This document shows, one piece after another, positions 3,201 through 43,900 of a stretch of DNA of 64,000 bases. Where the stretch lies: assembly GCF_004210375.1 (NCBI RefSeq), contig NC_134828.1, forward strand, positions 25,288,400 through 25,352,399. The letters run 5' to 3'. Position 1 is the stretch's first letter. The number at the start of each line of letters is the position of its first letter. The DNA comes from Tachypleus tridentatus (Eukaryota; Arthropoda; Merostomata; Xiphosura; Limulidae). The position numbers were made by a program, and so were the translations under genes. The notes beneath the pieces are model-generated. The model worked only from the letters and a program-made list of their open reading frames with translations, searched no databases and had not been told where the DNA came from.

Positions 3201-6200
3201 CGTGAAGTTCAGCTGATACTTATGAGATTATTGAGCATAATGATGTCACGAGTGAGAACCTCCCTTAAACCCCTACTTGGGGAAGCTTCAGCATTTTGTA
3301 GCACCAATGCTGCAATTGCTCTCCTGAACAATAATACTGTTGACTTCTGTTTACAAGTGCTGAAGGTCATGCTGGATTACTGGAAGGCTACTCATGGAGA
3401 AAAGTCAACAGGGAGCATAAGTCTACTGAAACCCCACCCTGAATCCCCTCCACCAGATATGTCTCCTTTCTTCTTGCGGCCATATGTTAAGGGTCATGCC
3501 AATGATGTTTTTGAAGCTTACCAGCAGTTGCTGACAGAAATGGTAATAAGACTTCCTTATCAAATCAAGAAACTGACTAGTTCTTTGCCTTCTAGCCCTC
3601 CACTTGTTTTTAACCAAGCCTGGTACTCTTACTTGTGTGAATACATGATGATGCCTCAAGCTCCTTTTGTGAAGAGACAAGTTAGAAAACTGTTACTCTT
3701 CATCTGTGGTTCCAAGGAAAAGTACCGTCAGCTACGAGACTTTCATGCATTGGAATCTCACGTGAAAAATGTCAAGGTCATTTGTCATCAGGGAGGTTAC
3801 GATGGAGGAGCAAGAAGCAGTGCTGTCATTAGCTTGCCCTACGATTCACTTATTACCCTTATTGAACACCTAAAAGCATGTACTGAAATTGCAACAACAC
3901 GCACCATCAACTGGCAGAAGTTCTGCTTAAAGGATGAAAGTGTTTTGTCTTTCTTAATCCACGTGAGTTTCCTGTTGGAAGAAGGAGTCTCTCCAGTTCT
4001 CCTTCAGTTACTGCAGTCTGCTCTTTGTGGTTCTGCTGGTATCCAACCTTCAAGTTCTCCAGTCAAGCAGAAGAAAGACAGAGAGAAGTCTGAAGAGGGC
4101 GAGGAAGCTCCAAGATACGATGAAGCCCAGTGTATTGCTCTAGCTCAACAGGTGAACAAGTTTCTGGATAAGGCTCTGCTCAGCCAGTTTATTCGTTACT
4201 TTCTGTTGGAGTCGAATGCCACATCTGTGCGTTGGCAGGCTCATTCACTGATTTTCCACTTGTACAAGAACTCAAGCTCGTTGCAACAGGAACAATTACT
4301 GGATCTAATGTGGAAATTGTGGCCTCTGCTACCTGTTTATGGTCGTAAAGCTGTCCAGTTTGTTGACTTGCTTGGATTCTTTACTCTAAAAACTTCTGCT
4401 TCTCAGAAGAAAGAAAAAGACTACATGGAGAAAGCTTTGGGAGTTATTCGTCAACAGAACCAGCAACTTATGACACACCCCAATTCTACCATCTACAGTG
4501 CTTTACAGGGTTACGTAGAGTTTGATGGATACTATCTCGAAAGTGAGCCTTGCCTCGTTTGTAATAACCCTGAAGTTCCCTGGAGCAATATTAAACTCTC
4601 GGCTATCAAGGTTGATTCGCGATTTACCACCAGCACTCAAATGGTCAAACTTATTGGCAGTCACACTATCTCTAAGATCAGTTTACGCATTGCTGAGTTG
4701 AAGCGTAGCAAAATGGTGAGAACTTTGAATATTTACTACAACAACCGTACTGTTCAGTCTGTGGTGGAGCTTAAGAACCGGCCTTCCATATGGCATAAAG
4801 CCAAAAAGTGTGTGTTGACTGCAGGCCAGACTGAGCTCAAGATAGAATTTCCTTTATCCATAGTTGCTTGTAACCTGATGATTGAATATGCAGACTTCTA
4901 TGAGAATTTTCAAGCCTCATCAGAAACACTACAGTGTCCTAGATGTAGTGCCTCAGTGCCAGCCAATCCTGGAGTCTGTGCTAATTGTGGAGAGAATGTT
5001 TTCCAGTGTCACAAGTGTCGAGCTATCAACTACGACGAGAAAGACCCTTTTCTTTGTAATTCCTGTGGCTTCTGCAAGTATGCCAAATTTGAATACACGT
5101 TGACAGCAAAACCTTGCTGTGCTGTTGATCCTATTGAGAATGAAGAAGACAGAAAGAAAGCTATAACTACCATCAACAACCTCCTTGAGAAAGCTGACAG
5201 AGTATATAAACAGCTGATGGCTAACATCCCAGCTCTGGAACACCTTTTACTTCGGATCCACGAACACGGGATGGTAGAAAGAGCACCAGAAGATAGTGCT
5301 GCTGCTGGAAATCCTGCATCCAATGTCAACCGGGGCATTCAACAGCTAGCCCAGAAATATGGCACTGATTGCAAAGCTTCATTTGATGAACTTAGCAAGA
5401 TTGTACAAAAGGTGAGTTTTGTATTTATCCAACATAAAAATCTTATTTATGTAACATTTAAAAACTGAAAGTATTATAACTTATTGGATTGGACACAATT
5501 AAAACTTTGTATTTAATATTTGACCAAAGCAAGACAGATATAAGTATAAAGTATAAAATGCAATTCTTCTTAGCTATTCAAACTTGTAAATAATTTGATG
5601 TCTTATGGTATAGTTTGGATTTCTGTTTACATCAAATCTTAATATTGTTCTTAAGCAGAGAATTTTTAACTTGTTAATTTATGACAGTACTATTAAAGTA
5701 TACACCCACTCCCAAAGTACAGCTAAGTTATATATGGTACATCTCAATCGTACATGAGTAGGTTGAAAATGTTTATTTACTAATTTTACATACACAAATA
5801 TAAATTCTGATTTGGACTTACATTAGGAAATAGGACAATATCTTATTTGTCTAGTACAATGAATGAATAAGTTTTTTTGTTGTTTTCACTGATGACTCGC
5901 TTATCTTATTTGAGAAACACTGCTTCTACCATGTGCAAAATACAAATATAAGGAAAACAAGAATGGTAAATGTAATATTAAGATGGATGGTATTGGTATT
6001 AAAACTTTAATTAAAATAAAGTACAAAATGTTCTGACCTTTTTAGGTCACGTTCTGTACTTTTATTTTAAAGTTCTAATACCCATACCAGCCATCTTGAG
6101 AAACGATTTTTACTTCAAGTGGATTTCTCGTCATCATAAAGAATGGTAAGTGTTTAACCTGACCTTTATTTTCTCAATGTTTGTTATATCAATGCTCTTA

Positions 6201-21200: not shown

Positions 21201-24200
21201 TGTAATGTAGATGATTTTGATAATCGCTACAGGAAACCCCCCAGTTATACCACAGTTCCAGGTTATACCACCGTTACCCACTTCAATGTGGTACACGTAG
21301 ATTGTCACATGGATGCTGTCAGGTAGATTTATACGTTTTAAAAGTTAATTTTAACTTAAGTCTAATCCTTTATAGCTTTTTGTTTCTAATGCAAAGCTAA
21401 ACCAATGGAAATTTTTATCTTTCTAAAATCTTGACAAACAAATCTTTTGATCTTTAAATACAGCATTTCCCAAAATTATCATCTGTGCCCTTCCTTTCTT
21501 TTAATAACTTGCACATCGAGTTAAATGACTAATTATAACACATGGATATCCATTAAAATACTGTGCTGTAATTAATTGTTTGTTATTTTTATTAATAAAA
21601 AAAATCAATTCAAATGTTTGATTGTAAATTAATCGCTCATCCCCACACCTTAAGAGATCATTTGCATCCTCCTGGGGAAATGCTCCTTTAATATATGTAT
21701 ATAACCAACAGTGACCATTTGAATTAGGTAAAACCTTTGTTACTAATTTATAGCAAACAGTCTAATGGCTTGAGCCACAGTTAGATTGTGGTTTCTGCTA
21801 CATAGTAGACTGATGGGTGGCTCAAGCCATGGTTAGACTGCAGCTTCTGCCATGTAGTAGACTGATGGGTGGCTCAAGCCATGGTTAGACTGCAGCTTCT
21901 GCCATGTAGTAGACTGATGGGTGGCTCAAGCCATGGTTAGACTGCAGCTTCTGCCATGTAGTAGACTGATGGGTGGCTCAAGCCATGGTTAGACTGCAGC
22001 TTCTGCCATGTAGTAGACTGATGGGTGGCTCAAGCCATGGTTAGACTGCAGCTTCTGCCATGTAGTAGACTGATGGGTGGCTCAAGCCATGGTTAGACTG
22101 CAGCTTCTGCCATGTAGTAGATTGATGGGTGGCTCAAGCCATGGTTAGACTGCAGCTTCTGCCATGTAGTAGACTGATGGGTGGCTCAAGCCATGGTTAG
22201 ACTGCAGCTGCCATGTAGTAGACTGATGGGTGGCTCAAGCCATGGTTAGACTGCAGCTTCTGCCATGTAGTAGACTGATGGGTGGCTGCCATGGTTAGAC
22301 TGCAGCTTCTGCCATGTAGTAGACTGATGGGTGGCTCAAGCCATGGTTAGACTGCAGCTTCTGCCATGTAGTAGACTGATGGGTGGCTCAAGCCATGGTT
22401 AGACTGCAGCTTCTGCCATGTAGTAGACTGATGGGTGGCTCAAGCCATGGTTAGACTGCAGCTTCTGCCATGTAGTAGACTGATTGCCTAATGAATCAGA
22501 TAAATCTAATTATGTTTAATATATTTAGTGAACTGCTGGGTGGTTTTAAATAGGTTTAATTTTTCTAAGAGAGTTCCCTAAATTAGTAGGAGGTTTTATT
22601 GTTGGAGACAGCTGTAATAAGGAAGATGTTATATCTTTAAGTAATATATCATAGCCTTAGTTTATTCACCCTTCCCAATTTAGTGTTAATCCTAAACAGA
22701 TTTAGTCTGTTTTATAAAACTGTAGTTTATTATAATATATTTATCATGTAATAGGCATGCTCGAGGACGAGATGAATGGGAGAGTGCAGCTCTTCAAAAT
22801 GCAAACACAAAGTGTAATGGTTTATTACCTGTTTGGGGACCAAAAGTACCAGAGTCAGCATTTGCCAGCTGTTTGGCTAGGTAGGCAAGTTCTATGAGTT
22901 GCAATTGTCCAGTTATTTTTGTTGGAACATAAATAAACACATCCTTCATTACAGCTTATCAGCTGGGTGAATAGAGTTTCTTTATTAAAATAGCAAGATT
23001 TAATATGACGAGTTTTTAAGTTTTAAACTATCATCTTGCCCTCATTTCTTTGAGAAAACAGGTGTTGATTATTGTGTTAAAACCATGTTTTTGACACAAT
23101 CAGATTGTAAAAAGTGTAATTGTTTTTTGCATGATTGTTATTGAAGAATGAAGTCTATTCAAAGTTAATGTTTCTTTTATTTAATCAAGATGCCTTTAGA
23201 TATACTGAGATCAGAAAGCTCATATTAATTTATTTAAAAGTACTGTCTTGTTAGCTTCAAAATGTGTTCCGTTTCTTACATAATGCAACGTTTGTTTTTT
23301 TTACTGATTTTAATCAATGAATAAGATCTGTAACCATGTGGAGACTATTGTCTCATCCATTATTTTCACCATTGTTATTACTTTGCTTTTCTTCAAAATA
23401 AAGTAAAAAAAAAAATAATATTAAAAGTGTTGTAAACTTTATTTTTTTGTTTTCTGTTTGTGATATTTTTGAATTTGAAAGAAAACAGAAAATCTGGTAC
23501 ATCTGCAGACTTATAGTGCTAAAAACAGGATTTCAATGCCTGTTGTAGGCAGAGTACAGATTGTGTAATTTTGTGTTTATTTATGGATGAGCTTGTTTGT
23601 TTTAAATCAAAGAATAAACAGCTTTTCTCCAAGTACCACCCACAACTTTCATCAGTTTGTTGTACTTATTTAAATCTCTTGTGAAGCCATTAAAACATGT
23701 TACTATTTGATCAAATCATACAGAATGTATTTAATAAACAGAGTATTTTTATTTTTTCTTGACCAGACATAACACTTATCTGCAAGAAAGTACAGGTCAT
23801 AGAGATATTGGCTACTCTTCCACGGTCCACGACCTTAAGTTGCTTCTCTTAAGGTTTGCCAAAGAAAAGTCCTTTAGTGAGGAAAGTGGAGGTGGTGGTC
23901 CTCAGAGCAACATATACCTTATTCCTTACCTAACCCACATGGCTCTCTATGTCATCAACACGTAAGAAAGCTTGTTTTTCTGTTCAACACTTGAGGGTTA
24001 TTTCTGTACAGCTCTAGTCATTTCTATTTTAACAGGTCACTATAATGTAAATTACTAAAAACCTGATATAATATTTCATGCTTTACTAATCCACTATTTT
24101 GCTTATCTCCCATATGTATGTGTATTTTTTTCTTACACCCAGTTAGTTAAGATGTGCTATTTAACTTCATCATTGATATGAGTTACTTTCGTATGTCCTT

Positions 24201-25716
24201 AGAACAAGATGTACAGCTAGAGAAGACAAGAACATAACCAATTTCCTTGAAGCTCCTCCTGACAAATGGGTAGAAAATTGCTTTGAGGTATGGAATTCCA
24301 AACTTTGACAGGGGAAAATTAAAAGAATTATCCAGTGAAATATATTTCCTATAGTTATGTTAGAATCAAATATTTCTATTAAACTTTTCCCTTAAGCCTA
24401 TTTAGTGTTAAGAACTTGTATATCTTTTAAGCTCAAAATATACCACTGAGCTGCTTGAAAACATTTCTTGTGGTTTTCCAGAGTAAGGCTTGATTACATA
24501 TATACTGTAGCTAACTTTAACTACCAAAAATTCTCCATCTACAAAATTGTTAAAAACTGATAAGATCTATTAACATAAGGAATTACAACTAATACCCGAG
24601 GTTTTCTTAAAATGGTTAATATTTTTTATAACTAATTTTTACTTTTTTCATCAACATGCAGCCCTCTTGCACGCCCTAAACGTTAACACCTGGCTGTGTT
24701 ATTGATGAAGAAAGTGTAATAAAACCCTTAGTATCTTGGATGAATCCTAGCTCTAGTTTGTCTTGACTAATAAATGTTTTCTAGAACATTCGGGAGTTAA
24801 AATTTTATTATTATTATTATATGTTCAAATTTTGAGTTTTAGTATTGTAGGTGCTTTCTCTATACCACTACAGACATTTTCCATTAGGTTTGGACAGTCA
24901 ACTCCATTGGAGGGTGGGAGTGGATGTATATTAATGTAATGCTTTGATTTTGTTGACTGTTGTTTTCTATAAAGTATATGTTCATATTTCCCTAGGCAGA
25001 AGGTCCATACTACTGGTTAACAATGTCTGTTCTCGTGCATTCCAATACCAAATGGCACGAAAACCGTGTGACTTACTTGAGAAGATTAATTATCCTTGCC
25101 CAGGCTAGGCACTGCTCCCCTCAGGGTACTGCTTCTCTTAGTGACCTTCAGCCAAAGGACTACAACGTTTACAAGTCTGCTCTTCTATTTTTCGGGCTGA
25201 TTAACGCATTTTATTCAGTTCTACTGAAGGTATGAAAATCAATGTTGTTTCCTTCCTTAATTTATAAAAAGTAGTTTCACCCTTCCTAAGTCAGTGTATG
25301 ATGTAAAAAACAAGAAATAACCATAAATGTTTCAATACTGATTTGTACGTCCCATAACATCTTCATACCTGTTTTAATTTGCCTTTCAGAGAGTCTCTGT
25401 CGGTGTCGGAGAAGAATGGGCTCCCGTAGTAGCAGACTACATCCGAAACAATGATCAGGCTCTGTTGGAAGCTGGGGATAAACTGCTAAGGACCTATGAA
25501 GACGAACTGCTACCGTGTCAGTCCTTCATGGAATTCTGTGATGTTGTTGGTAAGGTTTCCTTCTTAACTTCAGTTGTTAGTGAACCGTATATTCCCCTAC
25601 TACATAGTGTAATATTCTCGTCTGGCTCTCTTTTAGGCCTCCTGAGTAGTATTCCAGATCCAGATAGTTTTCTTCAGGAGACTCTTCAAATGGTGTCAAG
25701 AACCCAAGATGCTTGA
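268..25716 (+). CDS. UBR4: E3 ubiquitin-protein ligase UBR4, C-terminal half (24 exons)
   Basis: UBR4 (poe/pushover in flies) is a giant N-degron-pathway E3 ligase. Exons: 268-475, 616-929, 1852-2040, 2377-2691, 3060-5411, 6849-7366, 8453-8625, 9301-9611, 9732-9972, 11446-11643, 12307-12428, 12734-12991, 13219-13491, 14635-14976, 18322-18545, 19176-19325, 19523-19719, 21066-21322, 22755-22880, 23767-23961, 24203-24287, 24997-25229, 25390-25549, 25637-25716 (TGA 25714). All introns are GT-AG and phases agree exon to exon. The translation follows vertebrate UBR4 without a gap, e.g. [36 protein letters not shown] and ICREGY. Seen here are about 2,507 residues of a family near 5,000, so the N-terminal half with the UBR box lies upstream. 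A UIM-like helix (LAIALSLQ) ends exon 2. Frame breaks occur in exons 19523-19719 and 24997-25229. Identity is very secure; a few splice edges could shift by a codon. Confidence 0.96.
3060..5411 (+). CDS. UBR4: UBR4 giant exon with cysteine-rich zinc-binding segment
   Basis: A single 2,352-bp exon (784 codons, phase 0 at both ends) bounded by a pyrimidine-rich acceptor (ctcctttcag) and the donor AAG/gtgagt. It begins [11 protein letters not shown] and ends ELSKIVQK. A helical-repeat-like region is followed by a beta-rich stretch (from about 4500) and then a cysteine cluster at about 4935-5082 with CPRC, CANC, CHKC and CNSCGFC pairs. That spacing is typical of zinc coordination and is conserved in UBR4. 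The same stretch is, to my knowledge, split across many exons in vertebrates, so this looks like intron loss here. No internal stop or frameshift was found. Confidence 0.93.
5980..6097. repeat. Foldback (MITE-like) inverted repeat in UBR4 intron
   Basis: Arms of about 55 bp (agatggatggtattggtatt... and ...aatacccataccagccatct) face each other around a very short loop at gacctttttaggtc. The hairpin lies inside a 0.9-kb stretch bounded by two direct copies of a roughly 50-bp sequence (5678-5728 and 6565-6613, ttaatttatgacagtac...). It is probably a small non-autonomous DNA transposon remnant; the family is unknown. Confidence 0.6.
6790..6813. repeat. (TA)n microsatellite
   Basis: A run of alternating TA in the intron about 35 bp upstream of the acceptor of the 6849 exon. 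Confidence 0.85.
10838..10948 (+). repeat. Degenerate SINE tail fragment
   Basis: Contains gatggctaatataaatagcccttgaatgggtttgcatgaaatt. This resembles the conserved 3' body of the tRNA-Thr-like SINE seen intact at 56706 (cagatagccctcgagtagctttgtgcgaaatt). A second short piece is at 11224-11295 (acagatagcccgttgagtag). Both are old and diverged and lie in the intron before the 11446 exon. Confidence 0.5.
15160..15512 (+). mobile_element. tRNA-derived SINE, diverged copy with internal expansion
   Basis: The tRNA-like head (atggcccgggtggttaagg, cgactcataatccg) is interrupted by about 60 bp of repeated aattaagacaa/cccacatttgtaattgtggg before the B-box-like gggttcgaatccc. The common body follows (caaacatattcgcccc, atcccactattcattggtaa, agtgggtggt, tagctgtcttccctctag) and then a CAAA-type tail. 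It lies in a UBR4 intron, sense to the gene. Confidence 0.85.
16419..16561 (+). repeat. 72-bp tandem duplication
   Basis: Two essentially identical adjacent copies of a unit beginning agacttcaagaaataaaatt and ending atacaaatctt. The near-identity implies a recent duplication. It lies in the UBR4 intron between exons 14976 and 18322. Confidence 0.9.
19523..19719 (+). CDS. UBR4: UBR4 exon with 2-nt frame break
   Basis: The exon opens in frame as LEQVSSDQ, matching the invariant LEQVSSD of UBR4, but this frame hits TGA at about 19562. The conserved continuation [15 protein letters not shown] lies in another frame from about 19552 on. The shift is between GATCAGCGT and TGGTTCT (19546-19556) and equals a missing dinucleotide. 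The downstream part ([18 protein letters not shown]) is well conserved and ends in phase 0 at CAA/gtaagt. The exon is therefore real, but the gene as assembled would be truncated here. Confidence 0.85.
21066..21322 (+). CDS. UBR4: UBR4 hemiRING exon
   Basis: This exon starts in phase 0 ([14 protein letters not shown]) and encodes [11 protein letters not shown] followed by [15 protein letters not shown] and FNVVHVDCH. These are the zinc-ligand Cys/His residues of the atypical hemiRING in the UBR4 C-terminal E3 module, which in human UBR4 works with the E2 enzymes UBE2A/UBE2B. All C/H positions I expect are present. A small tandem ([14 protein letters not shown]) replaces the shorter vertebrate linker before the HFNVVH motif, apparently a local codon duplication. 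The exon ends in phase 2 and splices to 22755 ([15 protein letters not shown]). Confidence 0.93.
21760..22486 (+). repeat. 52-bp minisatellite (about 13-14 copies)
   Basis: Head-to-tail units of about 52 bp (agactgatgggtggctcaag then ccatggttagactgcagctt) are almost identical through the array. The first unit is diverged, one unit lacks ttct (about 22206), and one lacks caag (about 22286). It lies in the UBR4 intron between the hemiRING exon (ends 21322) and the exon at 22755. The unit contains a CCATGG core and PstI-like ctgcag but no open frame of note. Confidence 0.97.
24997..25229 (+). CDS. UBR4: UBR4 exon with 1-nt frame break
   Basis: The previous exon ends in phase 0 (WVENCFE/gtatgg) and this one starts AEGPYYWL, matching UBR4 DGPYYFT. 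The conserved remainder ([17 protein letters not shown] then [12 protein letters not shown]) is one base out of frame. The break is at about 25018-25022, within ggttacaatg, where one A appears to be missing. The 233-bp length is one short of a codon multiple although both flanking introns are phase 0, which independently supports a single-base deletion. Confidence 0.85.
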
Positions 25717-25916: not shown

Positions 25917-28900
25917 TTAAAAATTAGGTTTGTATTTCTTCACCTCCACCATTAAGTGGTGAATATTGATGAGTTCACTCCGAATGGGAAGGTTCTTGAA
26001 AGGATTATGGGATAGAACCTTGTGAAAACGATGGTAGTACTGGATCAGTTGAGTTAATGCCACCTGTTTATAAAAACAAACAAACCATGAGGTATGCATG
26101 GAGTAATGTTAAATAATGTTGAAGTTACTATTAATAAACACACTAACCTGTAAGATGTTGGTTCCATTTTTGAAGTTTGTGAAGGATTTCATGATGTCTT
26201 TGTTGATGTCATCAAGAGAAGCTTTCCAGCCACAGTTGAAAGAACGTACAAGATGGGCAACTCTTTCTACAAATATTAATGACAGTTTTATTGTGAGTGG
26301 AGGGTAGGTTCTCAAAGTATGAGAGCAGGCATGGGGGTATTATGATCACTGGAAACATCTCTTACATTTTACTAGTCAACACACATGCTCACAGTCAAGG
26401 GAAATAACGCACATTTTATACTTTGTTATAGCTAACCTGTATAAAAATTTATTCTTTACTTCTACCTCACAAGAAGCAATGAAACTAGTTGATTTGACTA
26501 GGTGAGAAAGAATTTTCAAAGCAAACTATAGAATGTGAAAATCATTTTTCACACTAACAACTTAAGCTTTCCTACTGGCTTTGTTTGGTCTTAGACTAAA
26601 CACACACATTGAGTAACTTTTGTTTATAGTCCTTACGATGTATTTATATATTTCTCTAGTATAACTATTTCTCCCTTCTAAATTCAGAAGGAACTTTTTC
26701 TTATTTAGTGTCAATGTCTCCATCAGACAGAAAAGGCTTAAATTTTGAGATTCCTTCTTCTAATGTTTTTATGTTGCATTTATTAACATGAACACATGAC
26801 TGACCTACACTAAACTTCCACAAGCCTTAACCCAAGAATTACAATCAGTTAACTTACTTTCTTCTTTCGATAAGTGTTCAGGTTGGCCTCTCTCCAAGTA
26901 GTTCTCGCACATCTTCACAAAACTGATGAGCCCTCCAAAGTGGGGAGACAGAATTTCTTCCACATACTCATGTGTTCGTGCATTCAGTAATTCCTTGAAA
27001 CTTTCAGACTCTTTGGAGTCTTCACGAGTTCGCTCCTCAGATTTAAAAAAACAGAAAAAGTTCTTGCTAGGTCCTGTAACCAATACTACCTTTGTTTGAA
27101 GTGACAGAAAATCATATTATAATTTAGTATTATTTATAGAACCAGGGTTGCTTTTTTAGCCTAAAGTACTCCATTTGTAAGATATTATGAATCCTTACAC
27201 TGAAGCAATTTATAAAATTATTTCTTAAAGCTGGTAACATTCCATTTAATTACTTACAATAAAAATAGAAATAACCAAGGATATTTGGAGGACCCGATGG
27301 ATAACATTGGTGTAAAATTTGTTAAGAAATCCTGCCAGACATATGATATAACTATTATCTTTAACTTACTAAGAGCACACTGAGCATCATATCATAGTTG
27401 TTGATGAGAAAAACCAGCTGTTCTTTGCGACCAGGAAACTCTGCTGCCATTCGGAGAATGAAGTTTTCCACTTCTCCTTGTAGTCCTCCCAGAAGCCGAG
27501 TGACTTGTTCGCTGGGGAAATTTTCGTTTATTCCAACGAGTGCAGCAGAAAATTCAGCATATCTTCTTGTGATCTACATGAGAATAAAACAGTTTCCATG
27601 CTTTCTGTTTAAGACTGGAACAACATTGTCAACAAGAAATCCAAAACTTTTAAGTTTGGATAAATCAGGATGTGTTTGAGCCTGTTGTTGAACTGTATTG
27701 AGAGAACTGATTTGTACTAGAAAGCATAGTACAAACAGGCCAATTTAATTTTAAAATCATACATTTCAATCTGGGTAGGTGTTGATTTTTGAATGGCATT
27801 CAGAGTAACTTACCATAACCTTGTACACAGGTGTAAGGATTTGGAATTTTAACCAAAGCCCACTTACTGGTCACTTTAGACAAACTTCAAAGCTAGCAAC
27901 ACAAGAAAACCATAACCCTGAGGAAATAGGTCAATTCATTTGACCAACAATATTGGAGAACCAATGTTTACTGTAAATTTAAAAAGCCTTTATACATATA
28001 CTAAAGTCTGCAGAATTTTTCCAAAGTTTTTTGTGAATTTAAGAAGTAAATTTGCATGAGTAATAAAAGCAACTGATACCTCTTCACATAGTACATGACT
28101 CTTTGTTAGTGAAAAAGGTGAAGCCTCAGTTCATTATTCAACCATATATTTCAGACAAGGTAACAGCTCGGCATTTTCTGTTGGTTATAAATAATCCAAC
28201 ACCACGTATCAGGAAGAATGGCTGGTGGAGGTGGCTTGGAGTTAATAAATTTAGATTTGCTAAAGTCAGTCATTAAAAACACCCTCAGAAGATCATATAA
28301 GAGCAAAGATGAAACCTTGATGTTGAAATTAACATTTAAATAATATAAAACAATTTATAGCTCCATGTTTTAATGACATACATTGATAATAATAAATACA
28401 ACTATTTTAAAAATATTGTTACATGCGCAATTTGGAACTCCCATAGGTATAAAACTAATAGAATTTTCTTTCAATCTTCACCATCCCCAAAGAAAAATAG
28501 CCAGTCCAACCCTCTTGGGCTACTCTTTAGTAATGTATATTAAGACTGACTGTCACATTATAATCATGACTGGTTTCAATTCCACAGACTGTGGATTTAG
28601 TGACCTAACCCCCAGGCCCACAAATGTGATTGTGTCACACACTTAATTCTACTGTTGAAATTTTAAGATACCATGTTACTTCCACAACAGTAGCATGGGG
28701 GAAAAAAATACAATAAAAAAAATTATTACATTATATGACACATAGACCAGGTCTGTACTAGTGACTGGCATATCAGAAGGCACATTCTATTTAAACCTCT
28801 AATGTATACATAACAGGAAAAAAGTCAAAACACTTACATAATGAGGCCGCAAGTCAAACGACCCAAATTTTTGTGGGTCACAGTCCCGGACACTCTGGAT

Positions 28901-31900
28901 ATTTAACTGCAAGATGTACTCAAACCTTGGCCAAAAGATCTGCAGCAAAGCTTCCCAGTACCTTGAGAATCAGCAATTTAATTGATGTTATATTTTCTCT
29001 TTCCTAGTAAAAAGCAGAAACTGCAAACACTAAAACAGAGGCTAAATATTTAATTATGGGCTAATAAAAGACATGGTTTATATTCAAGAGGTACCTAAAT
29101 GATTTTTAAGACCACAATGACAATAGAGATTAATAAACATATTTCTATATTTTTGAGAGTAGATTCTCAATAAAGATGAACTTCTCTCAAAGTAAACAAT
29201 CTTTTATGACAATATTTGTTTTCAAATTTTTCTCCAACAGCTCAACTAAAATTTATAGTCTTAGGTTCTACAAACTAGAGTTAACATCAGTCATCATGCA
29301 AAAAACAAACATCTACTCACTTATCCAATGCAGGGACAGCCCTTTTGTGCATCAGTAGTTGGTAACGATGAATAATGTGGATACACAAGAACAAAGCAAT
29401 AGAGTCGTAACAATCTTGTACATAAACGTCAATGTGTTTCTAAACAAGAAAGAAAACTTCAAACAAACTCTTTAATATGAAGTCAAGTTTCTGTTAAAAA
29501 AGTAACTGTGTTAAAATGACACAATAAATAGGCTTAACATTCATAATAATAAAAAATCACACTAGACCACAGATATTTTTTTTACTTGTTCTTCTAAATT
29601 ACTCCACTGTGAATGTTATATTTTTACCACCTGAATCTCTTCAAGGTGTTACTGCATAAGCAGTGTAAACCCCTAACTAATTTGCAGAAATATGCAGTAA
29701 AACATGTGTGATAATGAATATGAGACCCACTGATTTCATTGTTTCATACTGCACATCAAGTAGTAATATCTTGAATGTTGTTTTAAATATAATTAAAAAA
29801 AAGAAATCTGAAAAAAATAAGTCTAAAAACAAACATATTCACATATTTAAAACTTTAATAAGGTCATCAATGGCTTCCACTTAAACAAACTATATGATAA
29901 AGGTTATGTTATTTAGTGTATTAATTAATACAACAGCCTGTATTTGATCTGTTTGAAAAGCAAGGAGGATGTATGGATAGATATTACAAGTTGTATCACC
30001 AACAGACATCTGAAGAACATTACATTTATACACTTTGAGCCTAATAACAGAGTTTACTAAACAGCACTCACCATAAACATGGTTAGAGTTTTACCTATCA
30101 CTGCATGAAATAGATCCTGTGCCCCTGTCCCACTAACCATAAAGAATTCTGTCAGAAAGAGATATTCTCTGCATGCATTGTCCACTAAAGCATACTGCTG
30201 GCTACGAAAGAGACACTCAAATGTGTACTGAAAAAAAAAAAAAGACTTAAGCAGCTTGTTTCAAAGAATGATACATGAAACAAATATATAATTAGGTTGT
30301 AAATTATTTAATATGTTTATAATTTTAGTTTGGTTCTTAAGGTACGTTTATTATTTAAAATAATAACTTAGGTGTTAACCGAACAATGAGAGATATAATC
30401 CAAGTCCCACAGCAGCTTATGACTGTTAAGGCAAATTAGATTTGGGGCTGATTTTACCTGACAACACCTATTTCTTGTCCAGGAAGGCAGCTAGTTAACA
30501 CTACCAAACACTTCAGCTACTTTTTTTTTTTTTTTTGTCAACTAATAATGGAATTGACCATCACAAATTTCCCAAGAGTTAAAAGAGCGAGCACATTTGA
30601 CAAAGAGGCTTTAAACCCACAACTTATAGACCGAGTCAAGTTCCTAACCATTAGGCAAAATATATTATTACCAGAATCGTATCATTAACAACACATTTAT
30701 AATGAATAACAACCAAATATTGACCATAAAAATAATTTAAATTAAAAAGAAGGAAACACATCACAATCAAAACATTACTAATAATATTTTTGTAACAAAT
30801 ACAAGATCATGGTAGAGTTATGTCTCTAACTTTTTTTTTTCTGATTTTATTACAATGTAAGCAACTAGTTTGGGGATACAAATAAGACTGAAAAACAATA
30901 TATGTACAGACTTTATACTGTTTTAAATTATACACACAAAAAACAGACATTTAATACTTAGAGTATTTGTTTCGTCATAAAAACTGAATTAATTCTAAAC
31001 TCCAAACAAACTCCAATGACTTTACAGCAATTTCTATTTTGAAAACATCCAGCATATTAAAAAAAAAAAAAAACATACAGCAGACTCTGAAACCAATTTG
31101 TTTGGTTCTTGGTCAATTAGTCATGCCCAACTTAGAAATACGAATAATAACAGAGCTGACTTTACTACTGGAAGGCAGTTTGATGTTGTTTTTACATGGT
31201 AATACAACTAATCATTCTTATGACAGTAAGTATTTTTTTTTGTACCTTAGTTTCATTTTTTTGGGCCGTATGAGGTACCAAAATTGGACTTTCGAGATCA
31301 GTGGTCAGTATGTTTCCACGATCACCAAGAGTAAAAGTAGTGGCCTTGTTCTTTAATGAAGGTTTGGTGGAGAAGATACTTGAGAACAGTTAAAGTCACA
31401 CTACATACTAGAACCTATACCACACAGTTTAACACTTCAAAAAATAACTAGAAAATTTTACCACAAATGAAATACTTCAACTTCTTGTTCAGTGTAAAAC
31501 ACCATGAAACTTGGTTGCAGATAATCGTAAACACTCCACATAAAATAAAATAAACTACAGTTGAATTTAATCTAGCTCACGCCAAAACAGCTATTACACG
31601 ACGTAACACAAATTTTGTTCCTGGGTAGTATGTGTTATTTCCTAATTGCTTATGTTGTAAAAGTACAGAAAATGTCCATTATTCCCTTCAAACTTTGCAT
31701 TTGTGAACTGGATAATGAAATTTAGAAATTAACCTATTTTATATGTAAAAACAGGCAAATTTGCACATTTTCATTTACATAAGGTTTGAATAAAACAACA
31801 TATGAATCAAGATTTACATGTATTAAAACTAAAGTTATAGAAAAATAAACAATGTTTAAAAGTGAGTAGTTTTTCAAGATTTTCAATTGTAACGTAAATC

Positions 31901-34900
31901 GCTTTCACGTATCAGCCCCCAAATATAGTCTCCCATCATGTTTTTGTTGTACGCTCCTTGGTAGCAATGTTCAAAGTCCAGTATATCTCAGTGTAAGCAT
32001 TCGCCTTGCTCCTCCGAGTATGCTCCTATGTTCTTGAATTTGTCAAGATGAGCTTTAAGGACATGGACTTTCAGGGACATCCTGCAGCCCACTGTGCCAT
32101 AGTTCTTCACCAGAGCCTCTACCGGTTCCACATAATATTTGGCCTTTTGATTGCCCAAGAAGCCCCTAACTACTGCGACAAAGCTGCCCCAAGCTTTTTT
32201 TTCCTTCCTTCTGAGCTTCTTGTGGAATTCAATGCACTCCAGGATCTTTATTTATGGTCCAATGAACACACCAGCTTTGACTTTTGCCTCAGACAGCTTA
32301 GGGAAGAAGTCTCAAAAGGTACTTGAAGGCTGCAGACTCCTTATCAAGAGCTGTGACAAATTGTTTCATAAGACTCAATTTTATGTACAATGGTGGGAAC
32401 AACACCTTCTAGTGGTCCACTGGTGGCTCACACTTAACATTGTGCCTCCCCACAGAGAACTCGGTCAGTTGTGATAAACTGGTCACATACATAGCAGAAT
32501 GCATCTTTAGAATGCTTGCAGCTTCTTGATGCCATCTCTGACAAAATCAGATAGGTCTGTGTGTTCACTTGGGCAGCTGGAACTAAACTGAAGTGGTGAG
32601 TGGTGAATAGCCCCTATATATATATATATTACTATGGAAAGTTCTAGAAAATTCTAAAAGGTTCTTGAAAATTCTCATAAGATATACAACATTTCAGAAA
32701 ATTCTTATAAGCTTGAGAAAATTCCTTAACAACTACTCAGCACTGAATCTACCTAAAATGTTCTGGAAAATGAGTAAATTTGAAAATTTCATTACCCAGG
32801 TGACAAAAGAGACAAACATGTCTTTTCCACTTACTTTAGGCATAAGCAACTGGGAAATAACACTTTCTGCCCAGGAACAAGAAGAAGTAAAAATTTTGTT
32901 ACATAGTGTAATTCAAGTCACTGATAATGTAAATAGTTTCAACCACAATTAAGCCCGTTTTATTATACTCAACTTCATGAACCCTAGTATTAACAAAAGG
33001 ACCTCTTAGACATTGGAAACAATAGACATAGTAAGTTTGGAGGTAGGAATATATTCACTTTTACTTTCACTCAATGTTTTTATAACTATTAATGTAGTAC
33101 TTTTTCACAAAGGCTGTAGTAACTCAACCAGCTCCAGAACCAAACCAGAGGCTAATTTACTGGTCTGTAAGTTCTTCTGAATGAAGAATGACACAAGTTC
33201 AGGTTAAATAAGTATGTGATAAACATTAATAATAAACAAACAATCAGATGTTAAAATAAGTATTGTAACTAAACATCACAAATATAATTCTGATATGTAG
33301 TAATTTAAATTAGCTGACAAGAAATTAAAAGTTCCCACCAAAACACTTGTTTTCCAATTAGCCTGGTAAGCCCTGGTAATGGGTAAAAGGCCTCATCAGC
33401 AGTGGATACAGCAAATACGATGTGGGTTACATATTATTATATTCTTCTCTGCTTTCAATTTTGAGTTATTATTCTGACTTAAATAAAATGTAACAAACAA
33501 CCATTAAGAAACCAAGTTTTTCTGTCATTTTTTTAGTATTCAGTACATAAATTTCAAATAAAATGGTTGAGAACTAAAGGATATTTTTCCTTGCAGTGTC
33601 TTCTACTCCCATTAAGTCATCCTTGTCAGCAGTTTCTTCAAACTGTCAACCAAAAAATTAAACTAAGTTGTACATGCTGATTAGGTCACCACATCTAAGT
33701 AAGCCATTAATACTTAAAATAGGAAATATTAGTATATTCTAATTCATCAGAATATCTATCAAGTTTGCAGGTCCTAAAAATAATTTACATTTTATGAATT
33801 TATTAACCCTTTCCAGCCTGGTGTCCACTTCTGCATTAGCATCATAACAATGCTAATGTCATAAATGTCATCACATCTGGAATACAACAGATCTTCGTGG
33901 TGCAACATAAACACTGAAAACTTTTTAACCTAAGTAACATTTTCTGGGGGGAGTAACTACTTTAACAAAGCTGTAAGCTTTGTAATAAACCCACAACTAC
34001 TAACCTGAAAGCCAGGTTTCATATGGATACTTGTTGGTATTAAAACAAGTCACTGACCTTAAGTTACTATGTGCTAGTCCACTTTGCTTAAAGAAACTTT
34101 GAAATATCTCACCTATCATTAAAATATAAATAGATTATACTTATCTTACTATATATCTAGTGATAAGATATCTTACTATATATCTAGTGATAAGATATCT
34201 TACTATATATCTAGTGATAAGAATTATCCCTATCATCCTTATAGATATTACGGACAGCTGTATTCTGCCAAATTTAAAAACTGACACCAAATATATGGAT
34301 AAAGGGCACATAGATCATAAGAAAGAAAACAAACAATCCTAACTGTCAGGATATATAAATATAATTTTGTTTGCTTTACAACCATGGATAGTTGTAAAAT
34401 AAAAGAGACTGAATTAAATTTTATAGTTTTTGACTAAACCAATTTAAAAAATTCAAGGTTTTCAAACTTTTAAGCTGGAAATGAGCAAAAAACATGTCCA
34501 AAAACCACTAACTTCTGACATGCTAACTAGTTTTACCTGTAGAGAAAAGTCAAAATATTTAAACTACTAAAATAAAATATACACTTCTGTGGGCAAAAAA
34601 TAAGTCCTAACATTTCAATTACAGTCGTGTAATTTAAATGATACATGTTGGTAGTTCAGAAAGGTTTAAAACTTAATAATGAGATTTGCTTTTGAAAAAA
34701 AAAACACAAGATAATGATTAGAAAGTGTCAAAGAACTGAAAAAAATAATACAAAGAAATATTGGCTTCTCCTTAAAACCAAAAGTGATAGTTCTTACAGG
34801 TGTATTTTAAAACAAAATTCTGCTATATCACTTCTCAATGAACTTTAATTCTATTAACAAAATTTTGACCTGAGCCTAAACTCTGCACTAGCTGAGATAA

Positions 34901-37900
34901 TATAAAATTTATTTCAAACTAATATATCCTCTAACTTGTAGTCATATTTTAGGAACAAGTAAAAGAAAAATTCTGAATACTAAACACATTACATTATTGT
35001 ATATGAATGTTACTCTTTTAGCACTGACAATGATTATACTTACCTGCAGTTTCATTAGTCTAGTGGTGTAACTCTTAAAATATGAAAAGTATATCTTGGA
35101 CATCGTGTCAACATACTCGTCTCGAATCTCCCGTGCCACCTCTCTTTCATGAGTCATCAAAAACTGGTAGAAAAACTTAAACTTCAGCATTGTATCTTGT
35201 GTTACCTGGTAGTTTGTCATTGGTTTACGGAAGGAATAGATTCTTTGTAACAGGTACTCTCGAATTTTGGATAATGCCTGAAACAAGAATTAAAATCAGA
35301 ACTTCTCCATCTTACTACATAGTATAATCATAACGAGAAACCAAGTAATCCAAGTGCTTTCAAAAACATAAAACTTCACTCTTCATGGGTGAATTGAAAA
35401 TGAGGTGTAAGGTGTGAAAATATTTTATCTTTAGTAAAACTGAAGAAGCCCACCATGCCAAAGTTAAAAAGAAATACAAAAAGATGCAAAACAAATGGTT
35501 TCAGGTGTAAGGTGAAACAGGAATAAGATCTAGTTTCAGATGTAAGACAAGATAAGTACAAGGTCTGGTTCAGATGTAAGGTGATATAGGAACAAGGCCT
35601 GGTTTCAGGTTTGTAATGCAGTAGAGAAATACGGTCTAGTTTCAGGTATGAGGTGAGACGAGAATAAGGTCTGATTTCAGGTGTAAGACAAGATAAGTAC
35701 AAGGTCTGGTTCAGGTGTAAGGTAAGACAAGTATAAAGCCTAGTTTCAGGTGTAAGGTGATATAGAAATAAGGCCTGGTTCAGGTGTAAGACAAGATATG
35801 AATAAGGCTTGGTTTCAGATGTAAGACTAGACAGGAATAAGCCTGGTTCCAGATGTATGGCGAGATATGAATAAGGCTTGGTTTCAGATGTAAGACGAGA
35901 CAGGAATAAGCCTAGTTCCAGGTGTATGGCGAGATATGAATAAGGCTTGGTTTCAGATGTAAGATGAGACAAAAATAAGGCCTGGTTTAGGGTGTAAGGC
36001 AAGATGAGAATAGGATAAAAAAGAAAATGATAGAAATACAAATAATTAGTAAAACAAGGAAGACTTAAAGAACGTTTGTTACTTTTAAGCTTCCAAACAT
36101 CACTAAAGATCACCACTAACTTTCAAAGTCTCCACATATAGCAAATCCCCTTTTGAAAAACAAAGGTTTGCCTATCAAAAACAGTCAAGTAACTCAGTTC
36201 CTTCTTTTTTATCCAATCTTATACCTTAATGTTGATTCCTCAGTCAAAACAATCTATCTGTATAAATAAGAAATAAGAATCAACCTAATGATGATTACTC
36301 TAATTAAATAAACTGTTCTTACCTAAAAAAAGATGACAGCATACTGTTTCAGCAGTTGGTTAGTACCAATTGGTACTACAGATAAATAACATCAAAGGTG
36401 AAGGAAAATACTGTTGCAGACATTCAATAATTATCATTCTACCAAACATACAGTTTCCTAAATTTATCCTAACATTAGTACAGAAAGAAGTTAAGCTCAA
36501 GATGCTCGAATATGTACTGGTCGAAGAGTTCAAACTAGTTCTTATCACAATGTCTTCTTCCTAACCAAGAACAATCAGGATAGAAATATTTGACGTGTTA
36601 TCTTTCAGAACCTCATTACACACTCCAGAAAAACACAATACAGCAATCACTATTTTTCACACAACTGTATTTCAGTTCCACTACATTCACTGAAAAGTAA
36701 GAACTGTCTACAATATTATTATTTATATTGTTTCCCAAAGTTAATTCTGTGCCATCATACACGGTGCACTGATGAAAAACTGATCAGGAATACATTACAC
36801 ATGGAGAGATTTCCAGAAGGGTATTCTGTAAATTTCAACCAAATTTTTGGTTGTATTTATAGGTGGAACTAAATAATAAAATATTTTTAAACCTATATTT
36901 ATGGTGTTTAAACCTTTATAACTGAACACAGAATCAATAAGGTCAAACTTGTAATAAACTTTCCTTCATTAATCATTCAAGCTGTCCTTAAATTCTATAT
37001 TCAGAATATTTAAACCTCTAGCGTTAAATGAGTTTGTGTTTTACATTAGTAATTGTTAACTTCAATAATTAAGATAAACACTTTCAGTATAATTACTGCC
37101 ACCTAATCATAACCTTACTTCTATGAATGAACAGTAATATTTTTCACTTGGTTATCTCTCCTTACCTTGAACTTCAATTTATCAAGTATGTCTCGTACAT
37201 CTTGGCAAGAGTAAACTTCCTTGAAAGATTGTTCTTTTACAAAGGATATTTTATGATCCAACACATAGAGTTGTTCAAGAAAGTCCTTTTCAACTACAGG
37301 TGTCTCTAAAATGTGACTTCGCACACACACAAAAACAAATTATACATAAGTTTATCTTTATAAACAGTTACAAATCTTCCCAAAATAGCTCACTTTTGGT
37401 AAGCAATTCTAGCCTGAAAACCATCATGTAAACCTTTCAAAAAACATTCATCACACCAACTTTAGAATACTTTCTTTCATGAGCAATAAATAAACAATAA
37501 ATTTGAGTAAAATCTTACTGAATATAAAAACATGCAATCTATCTTGAGATAAAGAAATATACCAAAATGTACCACATACTTTATTCTAATTAATCTAGGT
37601 TTTCCAACAGAAAACATGAATACAAAAACTAAGAAAGTTTTTATTAGAAAAGTATATATATTTACATACTTCCACATAATTTTAAAGAACAGTAAGGTTT
37701 CTGGTCCAGATAATATTTTCCTATGGGTTTTGAAGGTTAAGAAGATGTGAGCCACTTGCTACTATTATTTGTAAATCCTTGAACAATGGGCAATTACCAG
37801 AGGGTTGGAAGATGGCTAACGTAATTTTTTTTAATTGATAAAAATTGTTCCAGTAATTATTGGCCTATTAGACTTACATCACTTGTGTGAAAAATTCTGG

Positions 37901-40900
37901 AAAGTCTAATAAAAGATGCTTTGCAAAATAATTTTAAAAAAGTTTAAAATTTCATTGTGTTGTCAAAACAGAAAATCCTTTGACATTCTTTGAAAAAATA
38001 TATATTTGTAGTTGAGGGTTTGATTGTAAATTTAGTATATCACAATTTTCAGAAATCATTTGAGAAAGTGTCATATGAAAGCCTTGTGAAAATAATTATT
38101 TTTTACAGGTGTGAGAGCTGAATTGGTTAAATGGATAGAAAAGTGACTGGATGAAAGAAAGCAGAAGGTTGTTCTAAATGAAGGTCAGTCAAACTGAATT
38201 ACTGTCATAAGTGGGGCACCTAAAGACTCAGTATTAGGACCTTTGCTCCAATTCACATTGATGACTCAGATGAAGGAATAGTCAATAAACTACTTAAATA
38301 ATTTAAAAAGGCTTATAATGGGGTGAATAATTTATGGGACACCCTGTATAACAAACATGGATTGCATTTAGTGGCAAGTGGATTTTAATTATAATAAATA
38401 CAATCCATGTTTGTTATACAGGGTGTCCAATAAATTATTCACCCCATTATAAGCATTTTTAAATTCTCTATTATATTAGTTATCTTAAAACGGTTTGAGA
38501 CAATTAATAACACACAAGAAGTTTTTGTTTTAATAAAGGAAATTATGTAAACTACCACAGTTCAGTCAATAATTCAGTAAACTTCCACATGAGCCCCATT
38601 GGTAGCACTCAGAATATCAGGGCAGATGTTTACTGAATTATTGACTGAACTTTGGTGGTTTACACAATTAAAACAAAAATTTCATGAGTCATTATTGATT
38701 GCTGCAAACATTTTAAGATAGCTCATATAATAGAGAATTTATAAATGTTTATAATGGGGTGAATAATTTATGGACACCCTATACTTTAAAAATCCACCAA
38801 GGACTGTAACAAATTTTAAATATGGACCTTAATATTGAATACGTATTCTCATTTTAATTTATAATTTTAGTTTTTAAATGTTTGAGGTATTTACATGTAG
38901 ATGACTAAACAAGTATTATTAAATTTCAATAACTCATTAACAAATTTTATGAGTAATCCTTTTTGATGAAAAATTTTAATAAAATGTTTTAAATCCTAAA
39001 TAGCTTTGAAAAACATTAACACACTTACTTTATTAAAACATCAGGAACCACTATGTCATCCACAAACTGACTTAGTTCACCTCGAATTGCCTAAAATTAA
39101 AGAAACTATTATTTTCCATTTGAAACTTTTTAAGAACAGATAAACTATTAGATGAAACATTACACTCTAGGAAACATTTTTCAATTTTCAGGCAAAAACC
39201 TGAACCTAATTGTTTTATTTAGTAAAAACAGTTCTCTAAACTTGTGTTATAATATTCTTATCAATAATTCTATAACAGAACATTCCCCCTAATTATAACA
39301 TTTCATCAGCTTTATAATTCCCCATTCTATATATATTAAATTGTATAGTATTATTTACACAATATATGTTCAAACAGTCAATGACCACTAGCCTAACATA
39401 TTCGCTTTTGGAGTGTCAAAGCACACACTTGTGCAGGATTGGTGAGCAAATAAACCTGATCGTAAGATGTTCTTGCAATAATTTCATCACATAATATATA
39501 CACACGCACGCACATATTGTTTGAGTGTGTGTTTATAACACCTATTAAAACAGGCACATCCATATGTATGTTTCAGAAACTGAATGAGGAAAACTTTCAC
39601 AAAATACATAAACATTCCTTATGTATAATTCTTACGAACTTATAGCTTGTCATACAGATGTAATGATAAAATACATGAGCTATAAATAAAATTAGACTAA
39701 AAATAAATTGCTTGCCACACCAATAAAAACCTATTCAATTTCTTAAATTATTTGACAACAATTAGTGTAAAATCACCTTTTAAAATTACCAAAGAAATTT
39801 TGATATCAGAATTTAAAAATCACTGAACACATCATAAAACACTATTTAAAAGTTTAAAACAAAAATTACTTAGCTCCACATCCAAAGGAAAACATGTAAG
39901 GATATCTCTTCAATACTATTAGCAATGACTATAGATATGTATACACATGTGATTAATAAAAACTAATTATTTCTTAAAAAATAAAACCTATACAAACGTA
40001 TATAAGGTTGTACAGTACTTTCAGTAATAAAAATTAAATGCAAAATATACAATAGCCTCAAAAAACAGAGACGGAGAAACAACTTTTTACGTTTTATGGT
40101 TGACAAAACAAGTATTACTCATACAAGAAAAACTAAAATGTTTTAGTATTAAAATAATTTCACTCTGACTGACCTGTCGATTTTTGAGTCTAATATTCAT
40201 GGACACTGACTGTTCTTGCAGTGTTAAAATCTCATGACTAATACTACCTAGGTCTTCTTGGAATGTTCTCAGCATCTGTTCCATTCTCTGTAAATGAAAA
40301 CAAGTTAAAACACCAGAAAGTCTTCACCCATAGTTCTCAGATTAATTTTTGCATCCATATTTCTCCTGATTTTACTATTTTATATTCAGAAAAATTGAAC
40401 AAAGGCAGTCTCTGAAACACAATTTAACAATTTATATAGAGCTTTATCTTGTGGGTGCACTTAGAATGAAATATAAAAAATTAACAAAAGGTCTTTTGGT
40501 AAAACAATTATTGCACCAAATGGTTTGTTTCTGTTACCTCTTACAAGGACAAAGTGTGGACTTCATTTTAATTAACAATGCTTTTAGAGTGAAAACACAC
40601 TCACCTCAAGTATTCCATCACAGGCTGCAATTTGGTTGTGAAGACTAGCAATGTTCTGACTTTCTTGTATGTCTGTACGTTAAGTTGTTAAGAGGTATAC
40701 ACAGCAAGACTGATAAAATTACATGCCCATACAACATGATTCACTTTAATACAAAAAACTGACAATAAAGGTCTCTTTGCTGTAATTTAAAAAAATTAAT
40801 CTATGGACTAAATTAAGTTTGAATGTTTATTCAAAGTGACCATGTCAGTTAGAATAGTTGGTAGATTAACGCAAAAATGGGATGACAGTATGAAACATTT

Positions 40901-43900
40901 TCTAGTCTTTATTACCTGAAAATACAAACTACCAGCAACAGAGATTTAAAAGTTTTTACAATGTTATTATATAATCTATAGTTTAAAACACATAAGGAAA
41001 AAATAAATTCATAATATAAAAACAGGTTTTACTAACTCCCAGAGACATAATTTTTCACCCAATGACCTTAAAATTTTTTGTTTTTGTTGCTCCAAGGTTC
41101 AAAGTTGATTATTTCGTACTTTGTATGCCTACAGGTAAAGATATTTGCTATCTTTACTCTCTTACAAAGATCACATTTAAGAGATACTGCTAGAAAATCA
41201 AGGACAGTAACATGAATGCCCAAGGTCACATAATGGAATAACTGTAAGAAGATGATGTTAAAAAAGCTTCATTTCTCATATGTTTCTTTACATCAAAATG
41301 ACTGTATTAATAATTAACCATCTAAAACACAGTTCCACAACTGGCAAGTTTTGTACTTTTACAAATTTGAAAAATTCAATTTTCTTTTATTATTAGAATG
41401 TTTCCTTAACAGATTAAAAAAAAAGCCATAAATCATAAACAGTCATTTCTTTTCTTTCTTTCTTTCTTTTTTATAATCAGGTCCTTCATCCTTTCTTCAG
41501 TCCATCTAAACTAAACAACCTTGACAACACTATTATTATACAGTTAATGGAGTTTTAGAAAATTTTGCCAAGCACAAGTTTGATTTCATAATCGTCTATA
41601 ACAACTCCACATATGTATTCCTGCCTCACTCTCTCCATCTCCACAAAAACTTTATTAAATTCATAACAGTTCCATTTACATATGAATTCAATACAACTAA
41701 AAAAACAAAGGAGGATGAAATCTTATAACTTGTTTACCTTATCATCTTCACAGTACTCTCCATCCACACAAAAATCTGGATGAACTAACGAGATACTTAC
41801 TTGAAATGTTTGGAACAAGCATTTGACAACAAATTGTTAACAATGTTACGTCAAGCACTTCATTCATTATTTGTGTAGCATCATCTGCACTCCAAACTGA
41901 AATACTATGCCATCAAAGAAGCTTAGAATTTCACACAAAACTACACAAGGGCATTTTACCCTAATTTAGCAGTGAAAGACCAGAGGGAAAGCAGTTAGTC
42001 ATTACCAGCCACCATCAACTCTTGGGCTACTCCTCTCTTACCAATGGAGAGTGGAACTGACCACCACATTATAACACCAACACAACTGAAAGAGCAAGTA
42101 TGTATGGGGATTTGAACCTGCGACCCTCATGTTGAGAGTCAAATGCCCTAACCACCTGACCATGGCAGGTATATAAACGATTTACTAGGATAGGATATAA
42201 AGCTACAAAATGTGGTCCTCATTTTCAAAATTATTAATTGGTATTGTTCAGTTAATATTTTAAAGAAAATCAACTTACAGTTTGTTAAGATAAATTACTC
42301 ATATAATACAGAATTTAAGTGAGCAAACTATGAACGCATGCTGAAAAGTATCATTTCCCACAAATTTGGTTGAAGGAGGTTACCTCTAGTACTTTGTTTG
42401 GCTGCACATTGTTTAAACAGATATTACACATGATTTGGCTTCAGAGCAACCACATTTCACTTGAACAAAATCTTATCACTCAAAACACACAATTAATTTG
42501 CCCTTGAAAATGGTTGATATACTACAGGGACAAAATCAAAATAAGTGATACAATCTTGAATCGAAGCATTTTCTACTTCTTTCAGTTCCTTCTCCACTTG
42601 GCGGGAGTACTGCCGCAGGTCCATACCCTAGAAAATTAAAAAACATTCAAAAAACAATGCTACATCTATTTATCTGAATCACTACAAAATTTTCTCATTA
42701 AAATTATTATCACATTTTGAATTTTAGACTTACCAATATCACAATATTTACATGCCCTCACCTTGGTACATGCTGCCAATCACCTTATTTTAACATTAAA
42801 CAGGTATCAATGTTACACTACCTTGGTAACTAAACAAAATATAAACATAACTTCCATAATCAACTAGACTTATTTTTTTTGATAACCAAAATGACTTAGT
42901 AGCTAGCATTCTATGTCTTTGAAACAAACCTTATCATGATTTACTGCTTTTCCAAAAATTTAATAAAATGTTACAATTTCAAAAAATTGTTACTGAAAAT
43001 ATTTCCAGCCAATATAAGCCCCATTATTTGGTTATCTTCTTCAATTAGTTCGAAACATCCACCACTTTACCAACTTACCATGCTTAATGTCTAACTGAAA
43101 GATTGCCAAATTCTGTGAAGATATACATACTGTACTGAAAGTTAGAAATATTAAGTCTATAAGGACTTTAAACAAATACAAAAAGGTCACATGGTTGGTC
43201 AATCTGACCGAGCCTATGTTAAAAAAAAAGTTAAAAATTTATTAAAATCATATGTATCACAGTTACAATAAAATGTATATAAACAATATTTTAGAATATG
43301 CCACAATTTAAACTTCCATTATTAATTCATAAATAATTAATATATATACAATATTTTACAATATGCCACAATTTAAACTTCCATTATTAATTCATAACCC
43401 TAAGCTTCAAAATAAAGTATTAACTCACAGACTTAAGAGCTTCCTTTATTATGTCATCCTCTAGGTTCTCCTGAATATGAACTATGTATATAAAAAGATA
43501 TAATATTACAAACAATTCTAAGATAACTTTATTTTACAATTAATATGACACATAATACTGATCAATATTTTGTGGACATCACAAATATATTGGTACTAAT
43601 TTTTACTAAATCTTTCTTTACTGGCCCTATACTACAGGTTTTCTGTGAGGTCATAATGCCAACTCAGCTACAGTATAGGGCTTGTAAACAAACATGAAGT
43701 ATATAATAATAACTTGACCATCATATAATGCTAGTAAAACAAAAACATGAATATATATATAATAGTATTAGACAAGAAATATGCAGAATATAATAGACAA
43801 GACATATGCAGAATATAATACATCATACAATTTCACCACAGTTTGGGACTAGTTAAGAAATATAGAGTATATAGAAGTAACTTGACACAGTATGGGGCTA

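What the first reader, a model, noticed from the sequence alone, without database searches (positions are those of the whole stretch)
31380..33584. U12-type intron in VPS52 with non-canonical termini
The exon encoding GVEDTARK is followed by ATATCCTTTA, the minor-spliceosome donor consensus, and no GT donor fits the frame. GACTTTAAC lies about 10 nt before the next exon, as U12 branch sites do. Frame continuity to IFSTKPSL requires the intron to end in AA (AT-AA) or, shifted one base, TA-AG. Either is a rare combination. A 2.2-kb U12 intron that has also absorbed a transposable gene copy is worth examining.
Basis: partly seen in the sequence, partly recalled or inferred. Interest (0 to 1): 0.7.

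Follow-up and report, generated by a model that had tools for sequence, protein, structure and literature searches.

The report
AT-AA minor-spliceosome intron in VPS52
One of the sixteen introns in this animal's VPS52 gene looks like the rare kind cut out by the cell's minor splicing machine, and it most likely ends in the unusual letters AA, a known though uncommon variation rather than a new mechanism.

Summary
VPS52 lies on the minus strand with 16 introns. Fifteen fit GT-AG in frame; the one at 33584..31380 (2205 nt, phase 1; 'intron 8' here) does not, except with a very poor donor. Its donor is an exact ATATCCTTT, with a U12-like branch site, GACTTTAAC, ten bases before the 3' junction. 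Of the 15 introns scored, its donor has the best U12 score, pairs best with this genome's own U11 and U6atac, and worst with U1. The genome carries U12, U11, U4atac, U6atac and CENATAC. Best reading: an AT-AA minor intron joining ...DTARK-S-IFSTKPSL.

Some claims need trimming. A GT-AG and an AT-AC pair also keep the frame; both score badly. TA-AG breaks the AT start. AT-AA is the commonest non-canonical minor pair in one survey's animal set (PMC10639083, passages). Branch-site evidence is modest (1.5% of random windows do as well; U12 pairing not distinctive). No transcript or orthologue was available. The intron holds a decayed, unidentified coding stretch. Intron 2 also looks partly U12-like. 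Verdict: real, a new example of a known kind, low interest.

The parts
33585..33642 (-). VPS52 exon before the intron (FEETADKDDLMGVEDTARK plus the first base of the split codon)
31380..33584 (-). VPS52 intron 8 in my numbering (ninth from the start codon), U12-type, AT-AA, phase 1, 2205 nt
33576..33584 (-). U12-type 5' splice site ATATCCTTT
   Evidence: pairs with own U11 and U6atac
31389..31397 (-). U12-type branch site GACTTTAAC, 10 nt from the second A to the intron's last base
31246..31379 (-). VPS52 exon after the intron (last two bases of the split codon, then IFSTKPSL...HTAQKNETK)
31988..32251 (-). longest open piece (87 aa) of a decayed protein-coding stretch inside the intron; similar reading continues, broken by stops and frame shifts, over roughly 31880-32560
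25917..45901 (-). VPS52 coding region, start ATG at 45901 (weak match, E 0.25, but exact frame and GT-AG splice) to stop at 25917; 16 introns

Best explanation
The intron is a minor-spliceosome (U12-type) intron of the A subtype. U11 pairs with CCTTT of the 5' splice site and U12 with the ACTTTAAC branch site; U6atac then replaces U11, and the second step uses the AA ten bases after the branch adenosine, joining A|GT into a serine codon (...DTARK-S-IFSTKPSL...). The terminal C of an ordinary AT-AC intron has probably been replaced by A. Shown: sequence, frame, donor match, snRNA genes, computed donor pairing. Inferred: that it is spliced, the exact 3' base, the branch base, and the ancestral AC.
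For: The joined exons of the 15 introns mapped first keep one open frame of 665 codons; 14 of these 15 are GT-AG, and so is the further first intron. Donor U12 score 13.5 bits against 2.5 for the next of 15 and -12.4 or less for the other 13; 3 of 127,982 window positions score as high, itself included. Duplex energies with this genome's own RNAs, 15 introns: U11 -8.5 (best; 0.22% of random 10-mers as low), U6atac -6.4 (best), U1 +2.0 (worst; U1 5' end recalled). Branch site 10 to 11 nt from the junction, near the stated optimum of 11-13 (PMC3584512 passages). Protein length agrees with recalled human VPS52 (AKKGFFSKPSL against ARKSIFSTKPSL, one residue longer), so no extra exon is needed. U12 127.7 bits, U11 94.4 and 84.8, U6atac 128.3 (best of 4), U4atac 83.1, all over the Rfam cut-offs, with 0 of 14 control genomes ringing. 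CENATAC/CCDC84: 4 matches over the cut-off. AT-AA is listed among human minor introns (PMC8280824 passages) and as the commonest non-canonical pair in an animal set.
Against: No transcript and no orthologue could be examined. The branch site departs from TTCCTTAAC at three of nine bases, and its best computed pairing with own U12 (-3.1) is weaker than that near 12 of the other 14 acceptors. Introns 2 and 9 have branch scores of 8.0 and 6.1, so 6.6 is not special. Pyrimidine content before the acceptor (0.65) lies within the other introns' range (0.53-0.88). [quoted passage not shown] The U12 matrices were approximations from memory. A base error at the last intron position cannot be excluded.
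Confidence: 0.86

Rival explanations
1. The same U12-type donor is joined to a canonical AC nine bases upstream (intron ends at 31389), giving an AT-AC intron and ...ARK-MFSS-IFSTKPSL.
For: In frame, no stop; canonical termini.
Against: That AC is the end of the branch motif itself, so another branch site would be needed; the best one 8-20 nt upstream scores -9.1 bits. It makes the protein three residues longer than the AT-AA reading, away from the recalled human length.
Confidence: 0.04
2. U2-type GT-AG intron, TTTA|GTTCTC ... CTCAAG|TATC, adding NILY (...ARK-NILY-IFS).
For: In frame; its acceptor score (-2.3 bits) lies inside the range of the gene's 13 modelled U2 introns (-6.4 to 13.2), and TTCTCAAG is also the acceptor of intron 11.
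Against: Donor score -7.6 bits, below all 13 modelled donors (-3.9 to 12.2); leaves the exact ATATCCTTT as coincidence. Intron 2, which was left out of that model, has a donor nearly as poor (-6.6).
Confidence: 0.04
3. TA-AG intron: the same U12 signals with both cuts shifted by one base, giving ...ARK-N-IFS.
For: In frame; ends in AG.
Against: The donor would be cut inside the ATATCC consensus; +1 to +3 are read by U11-48K; TA-AG does not occur in the main text of PMC10639083 (its supplementary table was not seen).
Confidence: 0.03
4. Assembly error or polymorphism: the true last intron base is C, so this is an ordinary AT-AC intron.
For: One substitution away; single-base errors occur.
Against: No positive evidence; not testable here.
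Confidence: 0.03

Closest known systems
A-type (AT-AN) U12-type introns, AT-AA subclass
   Same: ATATCCTT donor, U12-like branch site close to the 3' end, AA terminus; AT-AA is listed among human A-type minor introns that respond to CENATAC loss (PMC8280824 passages) and called the commonest non-canonical pair in animals and plants (PMC10639083 passages).
   Different: Nothing structural. VPS52 as a minor-intron gene was not found in three library searches (VPS52 with 'U12-type', 'minor intron', 'U12 intron'); gene lists in supplements could not be read, so it may be listed there.
Canonical AT-AC U12-type introns
   Same: Donor and branch-site spacing.
   Different: Last base A instead of C.

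Membership tests
U12-type intron (A subtype) | 5' splice site ATATCCTT at the exon end | tested here: met
   exact 9 of 9 to ATATCCTTT
U12-type intron (A subtype) | pairing of the 5' splice site with U11 and U6atac rather than U1 | tested here: met
   best of the 15 introns scored for both, worst for U1
U12-type intron (A subtype) | branch site like TTCCTTAAC, about 11-13 nt before the 3' splice site | tested here: met
   marginal: GACTTTAAC, 6 of 9, 10-11 nt; 6.6 bits, 1.5% of random windows as good; computed U12 pairing not distinctive
U12-type intron (A subtype) | no polypyrimidine tract | tested here: inconclusive
   0.65 pyrimidine, within the range of the gene's other introns
U12-type intron (A subtype) | minor spliceosome present in the organism | tested here: met
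   U12, U11, U4atac, U6atac, CENATAC
U12-type intron (A subtype) | AT-AA termini used in the transcript | not testable with these tools
   no RNA data
U12-type intron (A subtype) | minor intron at the same codon in orthologues | not testable with these tools
   no related genome is held for this one; one VPS52 copy seen in this genome (7 matches of 14 candidates scored, all inside the window)

The most novel reading that the evidence does not exclude
The AA|G end works as a one-base switch. AT-AA splicing keeps the frame; AT-AG, one base later, gives ISSPPNLH-stop, and retention stops after NIL. If minor 3' splice-site choice is as error-prone as reviewed (PMC3584512 passages), the fidelity of the minor spliceosome would set how much VPS52, and so how much GARP/EARP tethering complex, this animal makes; intron 2, also partly U12-like, would add a second such step.
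Probability: 0.08. Interest if true: 0.45.

Novelty: new member of a known kind. Interest (0 to 1): 0.2.

Why it matters
It adds one well-supported candidate for a non-canonical minor intron in a conserved trafficking gene. Annotation pipelines that allow only GT-AG or AT-AC would misplace this junction by a few codons or break the gene model.

Tried and rejected
Extra exon in the intron: not needed, since protein length across the junction agrees with the recalled human guide. Frame-keeping, stop-free junctions between -57 and +59 of the last full codon and -45 to +59 of the ATC codon were enumerated (1682 pairs); of the 7 GT-AG or GC-AG pairs among them only GTTCTC kept the start of the next exon. 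A duplicate VPS52 or a spliced retrocopy that would show the junction: none at E <= 0.001. Rfam scan of the window at gathering thresholds: 0 matches; tRNA scan: 0. PDB sequences related to VPS52: none at E <= 0.001. The decayed stretch: no Pfam family; 17 weak PDB matches (best E 0.015), treated as chance. Editing of the terminal A was considered from PMC4176328 (passages: GT-AA and AT-AG introns edited) and not testable. The N-terminal exon: one search failed on a wrong option, a crude pattern scan, printed nothing; the corrected search found it. A positive control in the same genome (PHB2), the copy number of the decayed stretch and a hemocyanin search to place the species did not complete, so the species was not determined.

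Full report
What is there. The window (64,000 bases, no N; G+C 0.334) lies in a 2.17-Gb genome of 205 contigs, at C4:25288400-25352399. VPS52 runs on the minus strand. A recalled human VPS52 matches 15 blocks in order. From these I placed 15 introns by frame and splice site and numbered them 1 to 15; the joined exons give one open frame of 665 codons ending at a stop, with Vps52_CC and Vps52_C domains. A corrected search then found the first exon, MATDDQTLEEVD (E 0.25, but in order, in frame, and ending G|GTATGT), whose GT-AG intron leads into VHIQ. That makes 16 introns; the first was not included in the scores below.

The intron. Fifteen of 16 introns are GT-AG. Intron 8 (ninth from the start) has no acceptable GT donor. 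Immediately after ...GCAAGGAAAA comes ATATCCTTT, identical to the minor-spliceosome donor consensus. The intron is 2205 bases long (33584..31380) and interrupts a codon after its first base. Its last 20 bases are GTGACTTTAACTGTTCTCAA, with the branch-like GACTTTAAC at 31397..31389.

How strong is it. With approximate matrices the donor scores 13.5 bits as U12-type. Intron 2 scores 2.5 and the other 13 score -12.4 or lower; 3 of 127,982 positions of the window, this one included, score as high. Using snRNA sequences from this genome, the donor binds U11 (-8.5 kcal/mol) and U6atac (-6.4) better than any of the other 14 scored, and U1 (+2.0) worse than any. The branch site scores 6.6 bits; 1.5% of random windows do as well, and introns 2 (8.0) and 9 (6.1) are comparable, so it is supporting evidence only. 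Its computed pairing with own U12 (-3.1) is not distinctive: 12 of 14 other introns have a stronger best pairing in the same stretch. Pyrimidine content before the acceptor does not separate it either.

The machinery. The genome has U12 (127.7 bits), two U11 (94.4, 84.8), U4atac (83.1) and four U6atac-like loci (128.3, 97.6, 86.1, 51), all above the Rfam cut-offs, while 0 of the 14 control genomes rang in each search; some U6atac loci may be pseudogenes. CENATAC/CCDC84, which in human cells promotes splicing of AT-AN minor introns (PMC8280824, passages), has four exon-sized matches.

Which junction. I compared five readings. AT-AA gives ARK-S-IFSTKPSL. TA-AG gives ARK-N-IFSTKPSL. AT-AC nine bases upstream gives ARK-MFSS-IFSTKPSL. 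U2-type GT-AG gives ARK-NILY-IFSTKPSL. AT-AG breaks the frame (ISSPPNLH-stop). Recalled human VPS52 reads AKKGFFSKPSL. AT-AA is preferred because it keeps the donor consensus, places the branch adenosine 10 to 11 bases from the junction, near the 11-13 optimum (PMC3584512, passages), and keeps the protein length to within one residue. The AT-AC reading would end inside its own branch motif and has no other good branch site (-9.1 bits). The GT-AG donor scores below all 13 modelled donors. AT-AG is described as disfavoured, yet exists among human minor introns; here it would be unproductive.

Is it unusual. Non-canonical termini are about 3.8% of the orthologous minor introns in the animal set of one survey, and AT-AA is the commonest of them (PMC10639083, passages). 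AT-AA is also counted among human A-type introns. Against its being common in arthropods, the part of a table seen in PMC7367187 gives 0% other termini among U12-type introns of honeybee and fruit fly. So this is a new example of a known kind. I did not find VPS52 named as a minor-intron gene in three library searches (the one listed paper has the terms in unrelated places), but supplementary gene lists were out of reach.

The insertion. Intron 8 holds a decayed protein-coding stretch on the VPS52 strand, with an 87-aa open piece at 32251..31988 and recognisable continuation broken by stops and frame shifts. It resembles, from recall only, an unnamed multicopy arthropod gene family; Pfam and the PDB sequences name nothing. 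Long introns with old insertions are ordinary in genomes of this size (general knowledge).

Limits. No RNA data, no orthologues, and no same-genome positive control, because 34 of 41 genome searches did not complete. The 3' base rests on frame and spacing.

Noticed in passing
window 42551..40673 (minus), VPS52 intron 2: GT-AG intron with donor T|GTATCACTT and CCTCTTAAC 15 nt before the AG, phase 1: the best branch score of the 15 introns scored (8.0 bits), second-best U12 donor (2.5, against -6.6 as U2) and second-best U11 pairing (-4.1). It may be a second, degenerate minor intron.
   Followed up: partly
window 3039..5468 (+) and 25378..25716 (+): Convergent neighbour gene UBR4: PF24079 146.8 bits and, in the last open piece, PF13764 39 bits reaching the end of that profile; it ends about 200 bases from the VPS52 stop. 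Exons between were not mapped.
   Followed up: partly
window 43837..44778; 35496..36012; 21803..22484: Minisatellites: 49-base unit x19 in the first VPS52 intron, a 35/69/138-base array in intron 6, and a 52-base unit x13.
   Followed up: no
L012-L015 (G000 C6:76516748, C4:81078628, C8:8296194, C11:68671440): Four U6atac-like loci; three match less well than the best, and L013 lacks the GAGAGAA stretch, so some are probably pseudogenes.
   Followed up: no
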